A stretch of DNA of 28,848 nucleotides, taken from a virus. Numbering within the stretch: the stretch's first letter is position 1; each line of letters opens with the position of its first letter. Positions 9,418 through 20,211 of the stretch are shown here, one piece after another. Position numbers and translations under genes: made by a program. The notes below the pieces were generated by a model. It saw only the letters and a program-made list of their open reading frames with translations, made no database searches and was not told the origin of the DNA. The stretch lies in IMG/VR virus record IMGVR_UViG_3300002161_000598, positions 24,784 to 53,631 of that record. One strand, 5' to 3'.

Positions 9418-11292
9418 ATGAATAATGAAATTAAAGAATCGAAACTAAATGAAGGTCAAACACAGGTTTATTCTGACGGCAGTGTTGTACCTCAATCTGG
9501 AGTAGATACTAATGCACCTTATTTAAACACCCCACCTCAACAATTACTTGATCTTACTGCACAGTTCTTTCAAGGTGGAAGATCTGAAAGCAAAGTATTG
9601 GCAATTCTGGTTGGTATGGGTATACCACAGCAATTAGCATTATCTAGTATCGCCGCTCACAGAGCCGCAATGGGAATGTATAACGAAAATCATAATAAAC
9701 AAAAAAATCATAACAAAATGAACTTTACACTTGCACAATTGTATGAAAATGTTATGAAGAGTATTGACACGCTAAAATTAATGGAATCCGATCAATCAAG
9801 GGTTTCATATTCGGCTAAGAATGCTCTCAACATTTTAGAAGAATCATTAGATATGTTCCCGCGCCAATTTTATCAATCTTTTGTCGCTGCACATAATAAT
9901 GAAAAAGGAGAATCCACTCCATTAAGTGAAAACCTTGAAGCTGGAATCAATCCTAATCTTAAATTTAAAATTGCAAAAACTTTACATAGAAATCTTGCAA
10001 TCCACGAATGGTTAGCTCCGGTTAGATCATTAATAGACTACATTGATGGTGTTTATAATAACACAAAATGGTCATTTAGAATCAGTGAAGCAATTGATAG
10101 AAACGAATCTCAAAAAGGTTCTTTATACGAAAGCTTAGTAAAAGATCTTACTGAAACTTTAGTAGAATCTGAATCTATTAAATCTAATCTTTCTAAAATT
10201 TCTACTAAGTACCCTTGGTCAAGAGATATCTTTGGTATTTTAAATGAAATGGCAATTGAAGATAAGAAAGCAGTATCAAATAACGGTGGTGTTGTAAGTT
10301 CAGTACTTTCTCCGGTTGTTGAAAATGAAAATGGATTAAACTTTTTCTTACATGGAAAAACTTATTCATTAAAAGATGGCAAAATTGCAGAATCAGTTGT
10401 TAATGATCAAAGATTCTTTAACGTATTAGAAGGATTAAAATTATTTAAGCATATTAACAATTCACTTGTTATTTTTGGTCAAAATGATAAATCATTAGAA
10501 TATAATTTAGCTGAAGGTAAATTAACTTTAGGTAAATCTGATCTTACTGAATTAAATCCTACACAGATTAAAGAATCATTACTTGCTACAAACTTCTTTG
10601 GTTACAAAAACTTCTCAAACGCTGACGTTGTTGCAAAATTCTTTGAAAGCGCAGAGTTACTTTATGAGATGGATAATTTTACAAACATCACTTCAAAAGA
10701 ATTCTTAGCATTGTATTTAACAATGATCGCTGTTGAGGAAGGTGTTTGGGTTAATAAAGTTAATACTGGTATGCAGCTGAATGAAATGACATTCATTCCT
10801 TCTGCAACAGAAGCAGTAAAAACAATTAAAGAATTTATTAATTACGATGCAACTACAATATTATCTGAGAAATTAATTTCTGAAGGTAATGAAGCTGTTA
10901 AACTTACTAAAAGAAGAAATGAAATCTCTGAAACTATTTCATTCCTTGAAGAAAAGAAAGTAAAGATATCTGAAGCAATTTCTAAAATTGGTAAGTCTGA
11001 GGAATTAGACGAAGCATTAGGTTTGATTAACGATGAAATCTCTAAGTTTGAAAAAGAACTACAAGAGACATATACTATCGTTGAAAAAAAAACTAGAAAC
11101 CAATATTTAGATCAAGGTTTTGTTGAAGCAACCATAGAAAATCCCGTATCAGGATTTAAACCGGATACAATGGTTTATGTTAATGCTGAAGAATATGCTT
11201 CTCTAGGAGATAAAGATATGTTAACCTTTATAGATCCTAAGAATGACAAAAGCTATATTGCTAAGAAACAAGATCTTAAAGTTAAGCTCTAA
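9418..11292 (+). CDS. Unknown 624-residue late protein, probably virion-associated
   Basis: I do not recognise the family. It has its own late promoter copy and is followed by an intrinsic terminator, so it is a self-contained late unit. The first 100 residues hold a hydrophobic helical stretch (AILVGMGIPQQLALSSIAAH). They are followed by an Asn/Lys-rich linker (YNENHNKQKNHNK) encoded by an A-rich stretch that looks like this phage's own gene leaders, then M101 NFTLAQLYENV. A charged coiled coil lies near residues 500-550. The C-terminus (FKPDTMVYVNAEEYASLGDK) looks like a small beta domain. Several (I/L)xE tripeptides such as LNE at 10-12 could be prohead protease sites. A head-internal or tail protein is possible. 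Confidence 0.75.
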   Translation: MNNEIKESKLNEGQTQVYSDGSVVPQSGVDTNAPYLNTPPQQLLDLTAQFFQGGRSESKVLAILVGMGIPQQLALSSIAAHRAAMGMYNENHNKQKNHNKMNFTLAQLYENVMKSIDTLKLMESDQSRVSYSAKNALNILEESLDMFPRQFYQSFVAAHNNEKGESTPLSENLEAGINPNLKFKIAKTLHRNLAIHEWLAPVRSLIDYIDGVYNNTKWSFRISEAIDRNESQKGSLYESLVKDLTETLVESESIKSNLSKISTKYPWSRDIFGILNEMAIEDKKAVSNNGGVVSSVLSPVVENENGLNFFLHGKTYSLKDGKIAESVVNDQRFFNVLEGLKLFKHINNSLVIFGQNDKSLEYNLAEGKLTLGKSDLTELNPTQIKESLLATNFFGYKNFSNADVVAKFFESAELLYEMDNFTNITSKEFLALYLTMIAVEEGVWVNKVNTGMQLNEMTFIPSATEAVKTIKEFINYDATTILSEKLISEGNEAVKLTKRRNEISETISFLEEKKVKISEAISKIGKSEELDEALGLINDEISKFEKELQETYTIVEKKTRNQYLDQGFVEATIENPVSGFKPDTMVYVNAEEYASLGDKDMLTFIDPKNDKSYIAKKQDLKVKL

Positions 11293-14502: not shown

Positions 14503-16266
14503 ATGTCAGGAAAGAAACTTTTAATTCTTGAAAGATCCCAATCCAATTTGGCACAAAATACCACAGATGATGGTGCCATTGTGTTAGAGGGCGTTTTTAC
14601 CGAATTTGGGGTACGAAATAAGAATAACAGAATTTACGAGGAAAAAGAAGTTCTTCCTCACATCAATGAACTAAAAGAAAAAGTTAAAACTGGAAAGCTT
14701 TTAGGAGAATTGGATCACCCAAAAGATTTTGATATTAGTTTATCTAATGTATCTCACGTTGTTGAATCTTTGGATTACGATCCAGAAAAGAAACAAGTTA
14801 TTGGTAGAATTCGTTTACTTAATACTTCAAAAGGTAAAGAGGCACAATCATTAATTAAGGATGGTATTCCTCTTCATATTTCAAGTAGAGCTGCCGGTAC
14901 AGTTGATGAAAGTGGAAAGGTTAAGATTAAGAAATTCTTTACATATGATCTTGTAGCTGATCCAGGTTTTGAAAATGCCGAGCTATCAAGAGTAAACGAG
15001 TCTTATGGATTTGATAATGACGATACCCTAATCATTTATGAAATGAATGAAATAAAAAACACAGAAGATAAAAAAGAAGCCACAATGGAAAATCAAAACA
15101 ATTATGTAACCGTCGAGGATTTTCAAAAGTATACTGAATATGTAAAAGGCGTACTAAATAACGTTAAGGAATCCTCAAATTCAGATAGTACTGAAATCGT
15201 TGAAAAACTTGTAAAATATACTGAGCACGTTGCTGAAAAGGTTAACCAACTTAGCGATTATGCAGAGTATCTTTCAGAAAATCTAGACAAGAGTATTTCT
15301 TTCTCTGATTATTTAGCAGAAAATGTAAATCAAATCAAAAGTTATACTACTTATCTTGCAGAAGAATTGGATTCTACAATTCAATATGCTGAACATGTTG
15401 CTGAAAAAGCAGACCAAGGAATTCAATATTCTGAACATGTTGCTGAAAAAGCAGATCAAAGTATCCAATACGCAAATTATTTAAGAGAGAACTTAGAAAA
15501 AGGTATTGAATATTCTGAATACATTGCTGAGAAAGTAGACCAAGGAATCGCATATTCCGAGCATGTTGCTGAAGGTTTAAATAAAACTATCAAATATGCA
15601 GAATACATTGCAGAAAATGTAAACACTGAAGAATCAACTGCAATTAATGAAGATCGTTCTGAAGAGATTGAAGCTAAGATCTTAAAGTTAGGACAACCTA
15701 AAATGGCTGGAACTACTGGAGAGGAAGAAGAAAAATCTTATCAAGAAACTATCGAAGAAAAACTTAGTAAATTAATTGCTAAAGCAGAATCTAAAATTGT
15801 TTCTGAAATGCACTTTATGAACTTCCTTTCTGAATCTAAGAAAGGTGAATTTAATTCTTTAACTGAAGATAAACAAAAAATGATTGTTGAATCAATGAAT
15901 GCCAAACCAATTATGTCAACTGGGCAGGCTGAAAATGTTTGGGACAACTGTTTTATTGAAAAGAAAAGAGAATTAAACTTTGTTGATGATATGCCAGAAA
16001 AATATAAAGTTAAATGGGCTTCTCTTTCTGAGTCACGTCAACAACAAATTATTTCAGAATCTAAATTTCATAGTTTAAATACTCCTTATGCAATCAATAA
16101 CTTCTGGTCAACTAGAGATTTAAGACCATCTCAATTTGAATTAGAAAAACTTAATGAAAGTAAGACTGCTGCTGAACAAACAGAGGATGCTAAAAAAGAA
16201 CCTCTAGTAAATGAATCATTTGCAGCTGACTTAATCAGTAAGGTTAGATTTAATTTAGGAAGATAA
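14503..16266 (+). CDS. 21: Prohead protease fused to scaffold (gp21-gp22 type)
   Basis: A 587-residue two-part protein. Residues about 1-170 are a T4 gp21-type (S80) prohead protease: GVFTEFGVRNKNNRIY, LLGELDHP with the presumed catalytic His72, HISSRAAG with Ser127/Ser128, and YDLVADPGFENAEL. Residues about 195-375 form a helical scaffold section with ten tandem 14-residue repeats. The remainder is another helical region ending LISKVRFNLGR. In T4 the protease and scaffold are separate genes 21 and 22; here they are one frame. M195 (15085) follows an A-rich leader-like stretch and may start a scaffold-only product, as lambda Nu3 does within gene C. The protease should cleave after (I/L)xE, and such sites are abundant in its own scaffold part. 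Confidence 0.88.
   Translation: MSGKKLLILERSQSNLAQNTTDDGAIVLEGVFTEFGVRNKNNRIYEEKEVLPHINELKEKVKTGKLLGELDHPKDFDISLSNVSHVVESLDYDPEKKQVIGRIRLLNTSKGKEAQSLIKDGIPLHISSRAAGTVDESGKVKIKKFFTYDLVADPGFENAELSRVNESYGFDNDDTLIIYEMNEIKNTEDKKEATMENQNNYVTVEDFQKYTEYVKGVLNNVKESSNSDSTEIVEKLVKYTEHVAEKVNQLSDYAEYLSENLDKSISFSDYLAENVNQIKSYTTYLAEELDSTIQYAEHVAEKADQGIQYSEHVAEKADQSIQYANYLRENLEKGIEYSEYIAEKVDQGIAYSEHVAEGLNKTIKYAEYIAENVNTEESTAINEDRSEEIEAKILKLGQPKMAGTTGEEEEKSYQETIEEKLSKLIAKAESKIVSEMHFMNFLSESKKGEFNSLTEDKQKMIVESMNAKPIMSTGQAENVWDNCFIEKKRELNFVDDMPEKYKVKWASLSESRQQQIISESKFHSLNTPYAINNFWSTRDLRPSQFELEKLNESKTAAEQTEDAKKEPLVNESFAADLISKVRFNLGR
15055..15087 (+). promoter_or_regulatory. Candidate internal translation start for scaffold-only product
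   Basis: An A-rich stretch (aaaaaacacagaagataa, then aaaagaagccaca) precedes in-frame ATG 15085, codon 195 of the protease-scaffold gene. It resembles the A-rich leaders before annotated starts here. The encoded linker (KNTEDKKEAT) shows no domain character, as expected if it is a leader retained in frame. The product would have 393 residues. Confidence 0.4.
15208..15627 (+). repeat. Ten tandem 42-bp repeats (14 residues each) in the scaffold
   Basis: Ten consecutive 14-residue units without gaps follow the pattern x-I-x-Y-(S/A/T)-(E/D)-(H/Y)-(V/L/I)-A-E-(K/N)-(V/L/A)-(D/N)-(Q/K), for example TIQYAEHVAEKADQ and GIEYSEYIAEKVDQ. Fourteen residues equal two heptads, consistent with a continuous amphipathic helix or coiled coil. 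Six units contain a strict (I/L)xE tripeptide (LSE, LAE, LAE, LRE, IAE, IAE) and four contain VAE. Units five and six are the most alike at DNA level, suggesting recent duplication. Confidence 0.9.
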
Positions 16267-16384: not shown

Positions 16385-18103
16385 ATGTACGCAAATCAAT
16401 TAATTAACGAGGCCGAAGTACAAAAGACTTGGGCACCTATCATTGAGGAGGCTACTGGTATTACTGAAAAATCTAAGGTTTCTTGGATGTCTAAGTATTG
16501 CCACTACCATAACTTAAATGAAAGTGTTTACAATACTGTACACCTCAATCCAAACATGAACGTTCAATCAATGGGCGCTCCTACGTTCCCTGGCGATCCG
16601 TCGACAATGAACGCATTCTATTCACAAACTCCAGGTTCTGGTGATAGACCATTCTCTTTACTTCCACTTGCTATGCAAGTTGCTGCTCAAACTGTAGGTC
16701 TTGATTTAGTACCTGTTGTACCAATGCAAGGTCCTATGGGAGTTCTTACTTACCTAGACTTCGTATATGGTGGTGGTAGAAACACACAAGCTGGTGGCCT
16801 TAACGGTAACTCTGCGCCTTTGATGATCAAAGTTAACGCAACTGTTGCTACTGGTGCTGCTCTAGCTGTAAATGAAATCCTTTACGCTGGTACAGGTTCA
16901 TTCGCTGCATACGAATTAACTTACGTTGGTAAGTCTCGTATCGACGGTTATGCAATCTTCCGTGTAAGAGGTAAAGATAGCGATGTTGCTCAAGGAACTA
17001 ATCCTTTTGCACAAGGTGAATTAGGATACCAACCAATCTATACTGCAATCACTGCAGCTACTGATGGTTATTCTGACGATGCTTTAAATACTGTTAAAGT
17101 TAACTTTGATAGTACTCCTGAATTGGTAAAAGCTTTAGAAGATCATATCCCTGGATTCTCTGGTAATGCATTCGCGGTTAATAACCCTGCAACTGGTACT
17201 CCTACATTCGGTGTTGAATCTATCGACGGTACAAACCCTTATGAAAGAGGTGCTGGTGAATCTACTCCAGATAACATCATGGGTCTATCATTGTTCAACA
17301 AATCAGTTGCTGCTAAAACTTACCAAGTTGCTGCTGCTGTTACACGTGAACAAGTACAGGATCTTAAACAATTCGGTATCGACGCAGTTGCTCAAGTAGA
17401 GGCTGTATTGGTTAACGAATTAACTCAATCTATCAACAAATACATCTTAGATAGAATCTTTAAAAATGGTGTAACTAACGCTTACCAAGTATCTCAAGTA
17501 GACGGTACTGTTCTTTCAGCTGCATTTACTACAGGTGCTACTGGAGTTGTTACTATCCAACTTGGTACTGATAACACTGGTGTATCTCGTTCTGTAAACG
17601 TAAACTCTGTAGCAGTTAACACAGGTGGTGAAACTCAAGGTACTCTACAACGTAGAATCCTTACTAAAGTTCTTGCTGCTTCTAACTTAATCGCTACTCG
17701 TGGTCGTAGAGGTCCTGCTACATTCGCTGTAACAGGTGGTAAAATGGCATCTGCAATGCAAGACATCGCAGGTTTCGTACCTTACCCACTTTCTAACACT
17801 GTAAACCAAGCTGGTGGATCTCTTTATCCAATCGGTGCAATTGCAGGTGTTACTGTGTATGTAGATCCAAACAGAGACTTTAACGATGTTAAAATCGCTG
17901 TAGGACGTAAAGGTGATGGTAACTCTCCTGGTTTAGTATTCATGCCTTACTTAATGGCTGAATCTGTTGAGACAATCGCAGAAGGAACTATGGCTCCTAA
18001 AATCGCGGTTAAATCAAGATTCGATTTAGTAGACGCAGGTTTCCACCCTCAAACTATGTACTACACATTGAACTTCTCGTTCAACGGTGTTGATATCATC
18101 TAA
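16385..18103 (+). CDS. 23: Major capsid protein, gp23-like
   Basis: A 572-residue HK97-fold capsid protein of T4 gp23 type (521 residues in T4). Matches to gp23 include an N-terminal KTWAPIIEE helix (T4: NKWKPLLE), VPMQGPMGVLTYLDFVYGG (T4: VQPMNSPTGQVFALRAVYG), VAAAVTREQVQDLKQFGIDA, ELTQSINKYILDRIF, and the C-terminal GAIAGVTVYVDPN...VGRKGDG...VFMPYLM...KSRFDLV. The presumed propeptide ends at an (I/L)xE site; LNE46 is a good candidate (T4 cleaves after LTE65), with INE9 and ITE28 also present. Codons are more C-ending and GCT/GGT-rich than in neighbours, fitting very high expression. It has its own late promoter, a structured leader and a strong terminator. Confidence 0.95.
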   Translation: MYANQLINEAEVQKTWAPIIEEATGITEKSKVSWMSKYCHYHNLNESVYNTVHLNPNMNVQSMGAPTFPGDPSTMNAFYSQTPGSGDRPFSLLPLAMQVAAQTVGLDLVPVVPMQGPMGVLTYLDFVYGGGRNTQAGGLNGNSAPLMIKVNATVATGAALAVNEILYAGTGSFAAYELTYVGKSRIDGYAIFRVRGKDSDVAQGTNPFAQGELGYQPIYTAITAATDGYSDDALNTVKVNFDSTPELVKALEDHIPGFSGNAFAVNNPATGTPTFGVESIDGTNPYERGAGESTPDNIMGLSLFNKSVAAKTYQVAAAVTREQVQDLKQFGIDAVAQVEAVLVNELTQSINKYILDRIFKNGVTNAYQVSQVDGTVLSAAFTTGATGVVTIQLGTDNTGVSRSVNVNSVAVNTGGETQGTLQRRILTKVLAASNLIATRGRRGPATFAVTGGKMASAMQDIAGFVPYPLSNTVNQAGGSLYPIGAIAGVTVYVDPNRDFNDVKIAVGRKGDGNSPGLVFMPYLMAESVETIAEGTMAPKIAVKSRFDLVDAGFHPQTMYYTLNFSFNGVDII

Positions 18104-18783: not shown

Positions 18784-20211
18784 ATGAAAAAACAACTAGT
18801 TAACTTTGAACATTTTAATATCATTAAGGAAGCTGAAGAAAAATTAGATGCCTACTTAGATAACATTGCTGAATCTTTACTTATTGAAGCAAAAAAACCG
18901 AAATCATGGGATAGCATGTTTGCAATGAATGCTATTGCTGACTATGAAGCTGGTAAGTTTGATCCAGATAATGATGCTTCTCTTGCTAAATGGGAAAAAG
19001 ATTATAATGGCGGTGTAGCGCCAAAACCAGGATTTGAAACCTACGATATTATTGCTTATGCATTAACTACAGGTAAAAAGCCAGATGGTACACCTATTAA
19101 GGAATCTGTGATTAATGAAGCAGAACCTGCTAAAGCAAAAACCAGATTAGGTGCTGCATTAGGTAGTCCTGTTAAATTTATTAAGATTAAAAATAATGCT
19201 AAAAAATATCAACAGACTTTAGTACAAAAAGCTCTTAATAATCTGGATTACGAAAAGAAAAAACAAGCAGCTGGTGGGGAAGTAGATAAAGATAAAATGG
19301 AAGTACTTAAAGCTGCTAATACTGCAAAGAATCAGGCACTTACTGATAAGGGTACTGCGATTGCAGATAGAATGAAAGATCTTGCAACTAGTCCTGGTTT
19401 GGAAAAGGTAAAAACTCTTGCAATGTCAAAGGCTAAAGTTGCTGCGGCTGAAACTGCGCTTAAAGGTGCAGATGCTGAAGAATCAAAACAGCTTAAGATT
19501 AGGATTAAGGAATTAAATGCTAAAGCAGCTGAGGCTGAAAAGGCAATTAAAGATTATGAAAAGGATGAACCTCAACAACAGGAAGCTCCTCAACCACAGG
19601 AAGCTCCACAGCAGCAGGAAGCTCCTAAAGTAAAAGAAGATCCTAATAAAGAAGATAACACCGAAAAGATAGCTGCATTGGATTCTAAGATTGATGGTTT
19701 AAAACAGGATAAGAAAACTAAAGAAGACCAACTTAATTCAAAAAATCACCCTGATGTTTTAGCTGTTGAGGTTGCGATTAAATCTGCTGAATTAGAAAAA
19801 GCTAAATTAAGCGATAATACTGACTCTATTAAATCTGCTGAAGCCGCTCTTAAAACTGCAAAGGCTGACCAAAAAGAAGCGGTTGATGCCGAGGCTGAAA
19901 CGGAAGACACACCGCAGAATAATTCATATGAATATGTTAGTGAATCTGTTTCAGATAAGTTTAGAAGATTAATGACCGAGCAAATACTAAATGAAGGTGT
20001 ATATACCCCAATACGTTTAACAAACATGTTAATCGATGACATTATAGCAGGTAAGAGAGATGGGATACACCCTCCAGATGCAAATGAACTTAAGGAGTTA
20101 GCATTGAAAAGAATAGGACAAAAAAGGTTACAAAAACAAGACATAGATGCTGTGATTAGCAGCTGGGATAGTTCAATAAGCTACGCAAAAAAAACTAAAA
20201 GGTTAAAATAA
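18784..20211 (+). CDS. Candidate head-internal protein, long helical with QEAP repeats
   Basis: A 475-residue, highly charged Ala/Lys/Glu-rich protein of unknown family. The N-terminus MKKQLVNFEHFNIIKEAEE has the aromatic-x-x-Phe pattern followed by IKE, like T4 internal proteins (MKTYQEFIAEA). Further (I/L)xE tripeptides (LIE, INE, LNE) divide the chain. Residues about 35-80 look globular (PKSWDSMFAMNAIADYEAGK). A long helical stretch is broken by a Pro/Gln linker with three QEAP units (about 19567-19626) and followed by another coiled coil. The last 80 residues form a basic domain (RLTNMLIDDIIAGKRDGIHP to KKTKRLK). It lies 17 bases after the previous gene. The composition suits a DNA-associated packaged protein. 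Confidence 0.75.
   Translation: MKKQLVNFEHFNIIKEAEEKLDAYLDNIAESLLIEAKKPKSWDSMFAMNAIADYEAGKFDPDNDASLAKWEKDYNGGVAPKPGFETYDIIAYALTTGKKPDGTPIKESVINEAEPAKAKTRLGAALGSPVKFIKIKNNAKKYQQTLVQKALNNLDYEKKKQAAGGEVDKDKMEVLKAANTAKNQALTDKGTAIADRMKDLATSPGLEKVKTLAMSKAKVAAAETALKGADAEESKQLKIRIKELNAKAAEAEKAIKDYEKDEPQQQEAPQPQEAPQQQEAPKVKEDPNKEDNTEKIAALDSKIDGLKQDKKTKEDQLNSKNHPDVLAVEVAIKSAELEKAKLSDNTDSIKSAEAALKTAKADQKEAVDAEAETEDTPQNNSYEYVSESVSDKFRRLMTEQILNEGVYTPIRLTNMLIDDIIAGKRDGIHPPDANELKELALKRIGQKRLQKQDIDAVISSWDSSISYAKKTKRLK

What the first reader, a model, noticed from the sequence alone, without database searches (positions are those of the whole stretch)
15208..15627. Scaffold built from ten 14-residue repeats, each with a prohead-protease-like site
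Seen: ten gapless units; six contain (I/L)xE and four VAE at the same position. Known: T4 gp21 cleaves after (I/L)xE and degrades scaffold gp22 to small peptides, some staying in the head. Inference: the array would be cut once per repeat into identical-length 14-mers, coupling core rigidity (two heptads per unit) to rapid disassembly. Copy number could tune scaffold length and so head size.
Basis: partly seen in the sequence, partly recalled or inferred. Interest (0 to 1): 0.72.

Follow-up and report, generated by a model that had tools for sequence, protein, structure and literature searches.

The report
Repeat-rod scaffold fused to prohead protease
A large bacterial virus, related to the biggest phages known, fuses its head-maturation protease to a scaffold whose middle is a long helical rod of near-identical 14-residue pieces, each with a conserved possible cutting site; that the protease cuts there is likely but unproven, and there is no good evidence that the number of pieces sets head size.

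Summary
The array is 140 residues of a 587-residue protein (14503-16266), a fused T4-gp21-type prohead protease and scaffold, between a gp20-type portal and a gp23-type capsid protein. AlphaFold makes the array one continuous helix. The repeat Glu is kept in 97-99% of distinct units in three relative sets, while the equivalent helical position seven residues later is the most variable. Tenacibaculum phage PTm1 has a different, 16-residue array with an [IL]xE in each of six units.

Against uniform cutting: two units have (nearly) fixed Val at P3 across close relatives; a 462-kb relative keeps the 14-residue period but has lost Glu in about half its units; the best-conserved cut-site candidates ([ILV]xE|S) lie outside the array, just before it, just after it and at the protease-scaffold junction.

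Head-size tuning is not supported: 11-13 units at 634-735 kb, none in the 540-kb Lak phage.

The layout (protease, junction site, conserved internal ATG, scaffold) resembles herpesvirus UL26/UL26.5. New variant of a known kind. Cleavage within the array: about 60%. Clean 14-mers: about 20%.

The parts
14503..16266 (+). Fused prohead protease-scaffold ORF, 587 aa
   Evidence: Pfam Peptidase_S77 4e-12 and S80 7e-7; PHROG 207 'head maturation protease' over aa 6-485, 3e-37
14551..14970 (+). Protease domain (about aa 17-156); H72 in ELDHP and S127/S128 in SSRAAG invariant
   Evidence: Foldseek to T4 gp21 5jbl 5e-10 and weakly to herpesvirus proteases; hmmsearch 5jbl 9e-5; motifs aligned with T4 gp21; invariant in A3
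14992..15003 (+). Candidate self-cleavage site VNE166|S167 at the protease-scaffold junction
   Evidence: [VL]NE|S with Ser invariant in 49 close and 46 huge-type sequences
15085..15087 (+). Conserved in-frame ATG (Met195): candidate internal start for a free scaffold protein
   Evidence: A Met at this place is near-invariant; all 86 cases extracted are ATG with A-rich upstream DNA and further cases show NMNKNEFVT or DMNKNEFVT. Use as a start is inferred
15163..15174 (+). Candidate site VKE223|S just before the array
   Evidence: VKE|S in all 49 distinct close sequences
15208..15627 (+). Array of ten 14-residue units (Tyr-phase 15217-15636)
   Evidence: one predicted helix aa 229-373
15643..15651 (+). 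INE383 directly after the array, candidate cleavage site
   Evidence: [IL]NE in 98% of 49 close sequences although the linker around it is the least conserved stretch (flank conservation 0.52); the same place in the huge-type set is [ILV]NE
15652..16263 (+). C-terminal helical scaffold part with conserved [ILV]xE|S sites (E444, E463, E519, E552, E571)
   Evidence: helices
12804..14456 (+). gp20-type portal protein
   Evidence: Pfam Portal_T4 4e-72
16385..18103 (+). gp23-type major capsid protein; probable maturation cut LNE46|S at 16514-16522
   Evidence: Pfam Gp23 6e-29; E46 site IL 97%, P1' S in 54 of 61
9418..11292 (+). 624-aa protein, candidate second core protein and protease substrate
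   Evidence: Highest [IL]xE[SAG] enrichment of 1,682 ORFs of three phages: 13 against 1.9 expected

Best explanation
The ORF makes a T4-type prohead protease joined to its scaffold. Shown: N-terminal gp21-fold domain, then the 14-residue array, then a helical C-terminal region, with a conserved in-frame ATG between protease and scaffold. Inferred: full-length and internally started chains co-assemble through the array, a 20-30 nm helical rod, into the prohead core under the gp23-type shell. After shell closure the protease frees itself at [VL]NE166|S, cuts the scaffold at conserved [ILV]xE|S-type sites flanking the array (E223, E383) and in the C-terminal part, and then cuts inside the rod at many, probably not all, of the once-per-repeat [IL]AE sites, so that the rod falls into small peptides that leave the head. 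The array changes length by 42-bp in-frame duplication or loss; its length is probably fixed by core architecture within a lineage rather than being a general head-size ruler.
For: Protease and scaffold identity; annotated counterpart in Tenacibaculum phage PTm1 'prohead core scaffolding protein and protease'. Rod: single helix 229-373 in the window protein and 236-449 in L119. Repeat Glu: 97% of 146, 98% of 40 and 99% of 104 distinct units with the motif positions masked when units were located; tree parsimony gives 4 aa changes against 36 silent in close relatives and 0 against 93 in huge-type, while position 14, the same helical face, has 43 and 36 aa changes; Asp in only 2 of 291 distinct units, whereas positions 3 and 10 swap E/D/N freely; on the exposed face, 165-169 degrees from the hydrophobic centre. 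Generality: [IL]xE is enriched in T4 gp22 (16 against 5.8 expected), Cr30 gp22, pT24 and PTm1, and T4 gp22 has five [IL]AE. PTm1 has 16-residue units with LSE|G, LSE|S, LCE|G, ITE|S, IQE|N. gp21 cuts after [LI]xE and reduces gp22 to peptides (PMC9026906, PMC9958956). Flanking sites and junction. Internal ATG.
Against: No cleavage data. P3 is Val in 23% (close) and 12-13% (huge) of units but almost never at the three conserved MCP propeptide sites (one V in 183 cells), though the junction site VNE|S suggests Val may be tolerated. P1' in the array (N, K, H, E) differs from the S/A of the conserved sites. LR756500 keeps the period with Glu in only 2 of 6 clear units. In the huge-type set Y1, E3 and Y4 are as invariant as E7, and the same module with its Glu occurs in a collagen-like, tail-fibre-like ORF (L203:1261-1881), so the Glu may be structural. 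Model confidence in the rod is modest (pLDDT about 47-77).
Confidence: 0.6

Rival explanations
1. The repeat Glu is structural, not a cut site: YxEYxAE is a lateral-contact surface of a helical bundle (perhaps trimeric), and the array is released whole by cuts at the flanking [ILV]xE|S sites.
For: Y1, E3, Y4 and E7 are all invariant in huge-type arrays; the module recurs with its Glu in a collagen-like ORF and in an 83-aa ORF beside a head-tail adaptor; flanking sites E223|S and E383 are better conserved as cut-site candidates; V and I/L interchange freely at P3 (17 and 52 changes).
Against: E7 sits on the exposed f-like face and is the most constant polar residue in the close family, where E3 varies (15 changes against 4); an E7-K11 salt bridge cannot explain it, since 127 of 280 E7 units lack K/R at 11; PTm1 keeps an [IL]xE per unit with a different period and sequence.
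Confidence: 0.3
2. One reading: every repeat is cut, giving uniform 14-mers, and repeat number tunes scaffold length and head size.
For: One Glu per unit, 97-99% conserved; 13 units in the 735-kb phage against 11-12 at 634-642 kb and 9-10 in the window's group; copy number evolves by 42-bp steps.
Confidence: 0.1

Closest known systems
T4 gp21 prohead protease plus gp22 scaffold
   Same: gp21-fold protease; scaffold lies between protease and gp23-type MCP; scaffold rich in [IL]xE, [IL]AE in particular; MCP propeptide with [IL]xE sites
   Different: One fused chain; ordered 14-residue array in place of irregular gp22; no sequence match to the gp22 family (PHROG 237)
Fused protease-scaffold of Tenacibaculum phages PTm1 and pT24 (PHROG 207)
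   Same: Same fusion, same protease family, strong [IL]xE[SAG] enrichment; PTm1 also has a repeat array
   Different: PTm1 period is 16 with a WIKxDFTKELSEGIEK unit; pT24 shows no array; scaffold sequences do not resemble the 14-mers
Mahaphage protease-scaffold proteins (LR756501/04/02, LR745206; 634-735 kb)
   Same: Same protein with the same 14-residue array, 35-38% identity overall
   Different: More and more uniform units (11-13), longer acidic linker after the array; no description of the array found in the papers searched
Herpesvirus UL26/UL26.5 maturational protease-scaffold
   Same: N-terminal protease fused to scaffold, junction (R-like) site, in-frame internal start position, C-terminal tail site; related protease fold (weak Foldseek match)
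   Different: Candidate sites end in Glu; internal start and tail cleavage are only inferred here

Membership tests
S77/S80 prohead proteases (T4 gp21) | Sequence family match | tested here: met
   Peptidase_S77 46.5 bits (cut-off 27) and S80 29.1 bits (cut-off 23.4)
S77/S80 prohead proteases (T4 gp21) | gp21 fold and conserved His and Ser motifs | tested here: met
   5jbl 5e-10; DHP and SSRAAG aligned with T4 NHP and SSRGLG, invariant
S77/S80 prohead proteases (T4 gp21) | Cleaves after a short motif ending in Glu | not testable with these tools
   Only indirect: conserved [IL]xE in MCP propeptide and linkers
PHROG 207 fused head maturation protease | Match extending over protease and scaffold parts | tested here: met
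   aa 6-485 to profile 15-486 of 519, 3e-37
T4 gp22 scaffold family (PHROG 237) | Sequence homology of the scaffold part | tested here: not met
   No PHROG 237 match for P0001 although T4 gp22 matches it at 2e-92; gp22-like only in position and composition
T4 gp22-like protease substrate | Excess of [IL]xE over composition | tested here: met
   21 against 11.1 expected; T4 gp22 16 against 5.8
gp21-type cleavage site in every repeat | I or L at P3 and E at P1 in all units | tested here: not met
   6 of 10 in the window; 75% of distinct close units, 85-86% in huge phages
Canonical heptad coiled coil | Hydrophobic a and d in every heptad | tested here: inconclusive
   a=2/9, d=5/12: positions 5 and 9 hydrophobic, 2 and 12 small or polar, 6 and 13 hydrophobic; helix predicted
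Herpesvirus UL26/UL26.5 layout | Internal in-frame start yielding free scaffold | tested here: inconclusive
   Conserved Met195 codon ATG, A-rich upstream; no expression data

The most novel reading that the evidence does not exclude
The scaffold core of the largest phages is a modular, self-dismantling rod: each 14-residue module carries its own cut site for the protease fused to the same chain, and module number is set by, or sets, head dimensions within a lineage.
Probability: 0.12. Interest if true: 0.8.

Novelty: new variant of a known kind. Interest (0 to 1): 0.5.

Why it matters
How phages with 500-700 kb genomes build and then clear a scaffold is unknown; [quoted passage not shown] The array gives a concrete, testable scaffold element in the largest known phages and in many environmental relatives, and a natural contrast (LR756500, PTm1, Lak) for separating structural from proteolytic roles of the repeat Glu. 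The fused layout with a conserved internal ATG parallels herpesvirus UL26/UL26.5.

Tried and rejected
Relatives in 84,980 bacterial and archaeal genomes: none. Search by PTm1 sequence for further 16-residue arrays: only PTm1 itself. Idea that P1' Ser/Ala rules out array cleavage: weakened, because the huge phages' MCP site is also followed by Asn. Idea that E7 is held by an E7-K11 salt bridge: not sufficient. Placing the phage in the bS21 freshwater group: not supported, no S21 gene in the window's record. Copy number against genome size: too few complete relatives and phylogenetically confounded; no test attempted beyond listing. Literature: no paper found on a repeat-array prohead scaffold; absence from this library is weak evidence.

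Full report
What is there. The window is 28.8 kb of a 53.6-kb viral record. The ORF 14503-16266 encodes 587 residues. Its first ~156 residues match Peptidase_S77/S80 and, as a model, the T4 gp21 crystal structure 5jbl (Foldseek 5e-10, with herpesvirus proteases among the weak next matches; sequence 9e-5). PHROG 207, head maturation protease, covers residues 6-485, so a fused protease-scaffold is a known family. The gene lies between a gp20-type portal and a gp23-type capsid protein.

The array. Ten gapless 14-mers occupy exactly the stated coordinates, with six [IL]xE and four VAE. Lag-14 identity is 0.40 against a maximum of 0.23 in 20,000 shuffles. AlphaFold gives one helix, 229-373, at modest confidence (pLDDT about 47-72); in the relative L119 one helix of 214 residues, pLDDT 56-77 over the array. 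Hydrophobic residues fall at positions 5, 9 and 13, with 6 partly; in heptad terms a = 2/9, d = 5/12, e = 6/13, so alternate a/d layers are small or polar. 'Two heptads' is thus a fair but imperfect description.

Relatives. I collected 80 close relatives, 80 huge-type relatives, 22 matches to the LR756500 protein, and named records of 462-735 kb. The 634, 636, 642 and 735 kb genomes are described in PMC7162821 as complete and in the Mahaphage clade, which also holds Lak. Array copies: nine in 76 of 80 close relatives, ten in four; 11 in most huge-type relatives; 11, 11, 12 and 13 in the 634, 642, 636 and 735 kb phages. Lak has no array.

Is the Glu special? With the motif positions masked when units were located, Glu is present in 97%, 98% and 99% of distinct units of the three main sets, but in 2 of 6 in LR756500. 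On codon trees, position 7 shows 4 amino-acid changes against 36 silent in close relatives and 0 against 93 in the huge-type set; position 14, seven residues on and on the same exposed face, shows 43 and 36. Asp replaces it in 2 of 291 distinct units, whereas acidic positions 3 and 10 swap freely. That pattern suits a Glu-specific enzyme, but Y1, E3 and Y4 are just as fixed in the huge-type set, so a contact surface is a live rival.

Does it look like a cut site? T4 gp21 cuts after [LI]xE (PMC9026906). T4 gp22 is itself rich in such motifs (16 against 5.8 by composition), five of them [IL]AE, so the array looks like a regularised gp22. The conserved MCP propeptide sites are LINE|A, IIEE|A/S and LNE|S, with I/L almost always at P3. 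The array differs: V in 12-23% of units and N/K/H/E after the Glu. Unit 5 is V in all and unit 8 in 90% of close relatives. In the huge phages the corresponding MCP site is followed by N (INE|N, IHE|N), as in most of their array units, so P1' Asn is no bar there.

Stronger sites lie outside the array: E166|S at the protease-scaffold junction (Ser invariant), E223|S just before the array, E383 just after it in an otherwise hypervariable linker, and E444, E463, E519, E552 and E571 in the C-terminal part. I infer that these release and break up the scaffold first, and that array cuts follow.

An independent array. PTm1's fused protein has a 16-residue array (WIRTTFTKELSEGIEK and variants) with LSE|G, LSE|S, LCE|G, ITE|S or IQE|N in each of six units. 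Period, sequence and even the position of the motif differ, yet one [IL]xE per unit is kept. This is the best evidence for a proteolytic rather than a purely structural reason, though it rests on one phage lineage.

Layout. A Met codon at position 195, always ATG in the cases read out, lies in the variable linker between protease and scaffold in the relatives looked at. An internal start there would give free scaffold in excess over protease, as for herpesvirus UL26.5 (PMC12474303). T4 has about 580 gp22 to 55-100 gp21. This is inference.

Other places. A scan of two huge genomes finds the unit in a few other ORFs: three units in a 207-aa collagen-like ORF and up to four in an 83-aa ORF near a head-tail adaptor gene. 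So the unit is a portable helical module, and its Glu is kept where proteolysis is not obvious. This lowers my confidence in the cut-site reading.

Verdict. Observation confirmed. Interpretation partly supported: protease-scaffold and rod, yes; cleavage within the array, likely (about 0.6); uniform 14-mers, about 0.2; head-size tuning by copy number, about 0.1.

Noticed in passing
window 9418-11292 (+): 624-aa protein of no known family with the strongest [IL]xE[SAG] excess of 1,682 ORFs in three phages (13 against 1.9 expected; [IL]xE 28 against 9.5), many sites conserved in 32 distinct relatives: candidate second core protein cut by the prohead protease.
   Followed up: partly
window 18784-20211 (+): 475-aa protein with a run of [IL]xE[AS] sites near its N-terminus and an 18-bp tandem repeat (PQQQEA, 19570-19626): possible internal head protein with a propeptide. 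Only the window copy was available.
   Followed up: no
L007:4073-5767 (Tenacibaculum phage PTm1): Independent 16-residue repeat array with one [IL]xE per unit in the fused protease-scaffold; 16 [IL]xE[SAG] in the protein against 1.6 expected.
   Followed up: partly
L203:1261-1884 (735-kb phage): Three 14-residue units, Glu kept, after a collagen-like stretch in a 207-aa tail-fibre-like ORF; hints at a trimeric helical module.
   Followed up: partly
L202:1936-2187 (-) (634-kb phage): 83-aa ORF made almost wholly of the 14-residue units, close to a head-tail adaptor gene (PHROG 211).
   Followed up: partly
L204:1159-2077 (735-kb phage): Two adjacent ORFs with a YSDYVGE/YSEYVAS unit near the N-terminus and a C-terminal hydrophobic segment; possible membrane-anchored partners of the core.
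   Followed up: no
window 15085-15087: In-frame ATG conserved in relatives at the start of the scaffold part with A-rich upstream DNA; candidate internal translation start.
   Followed up: partly
records behind L003, L004, L005, L006: Each of the 634-735 kb phages encodes a ribosomal protein S21 homologue above the Pfam cut-off; LR756500 and the window's record do not.
   Followed up: no
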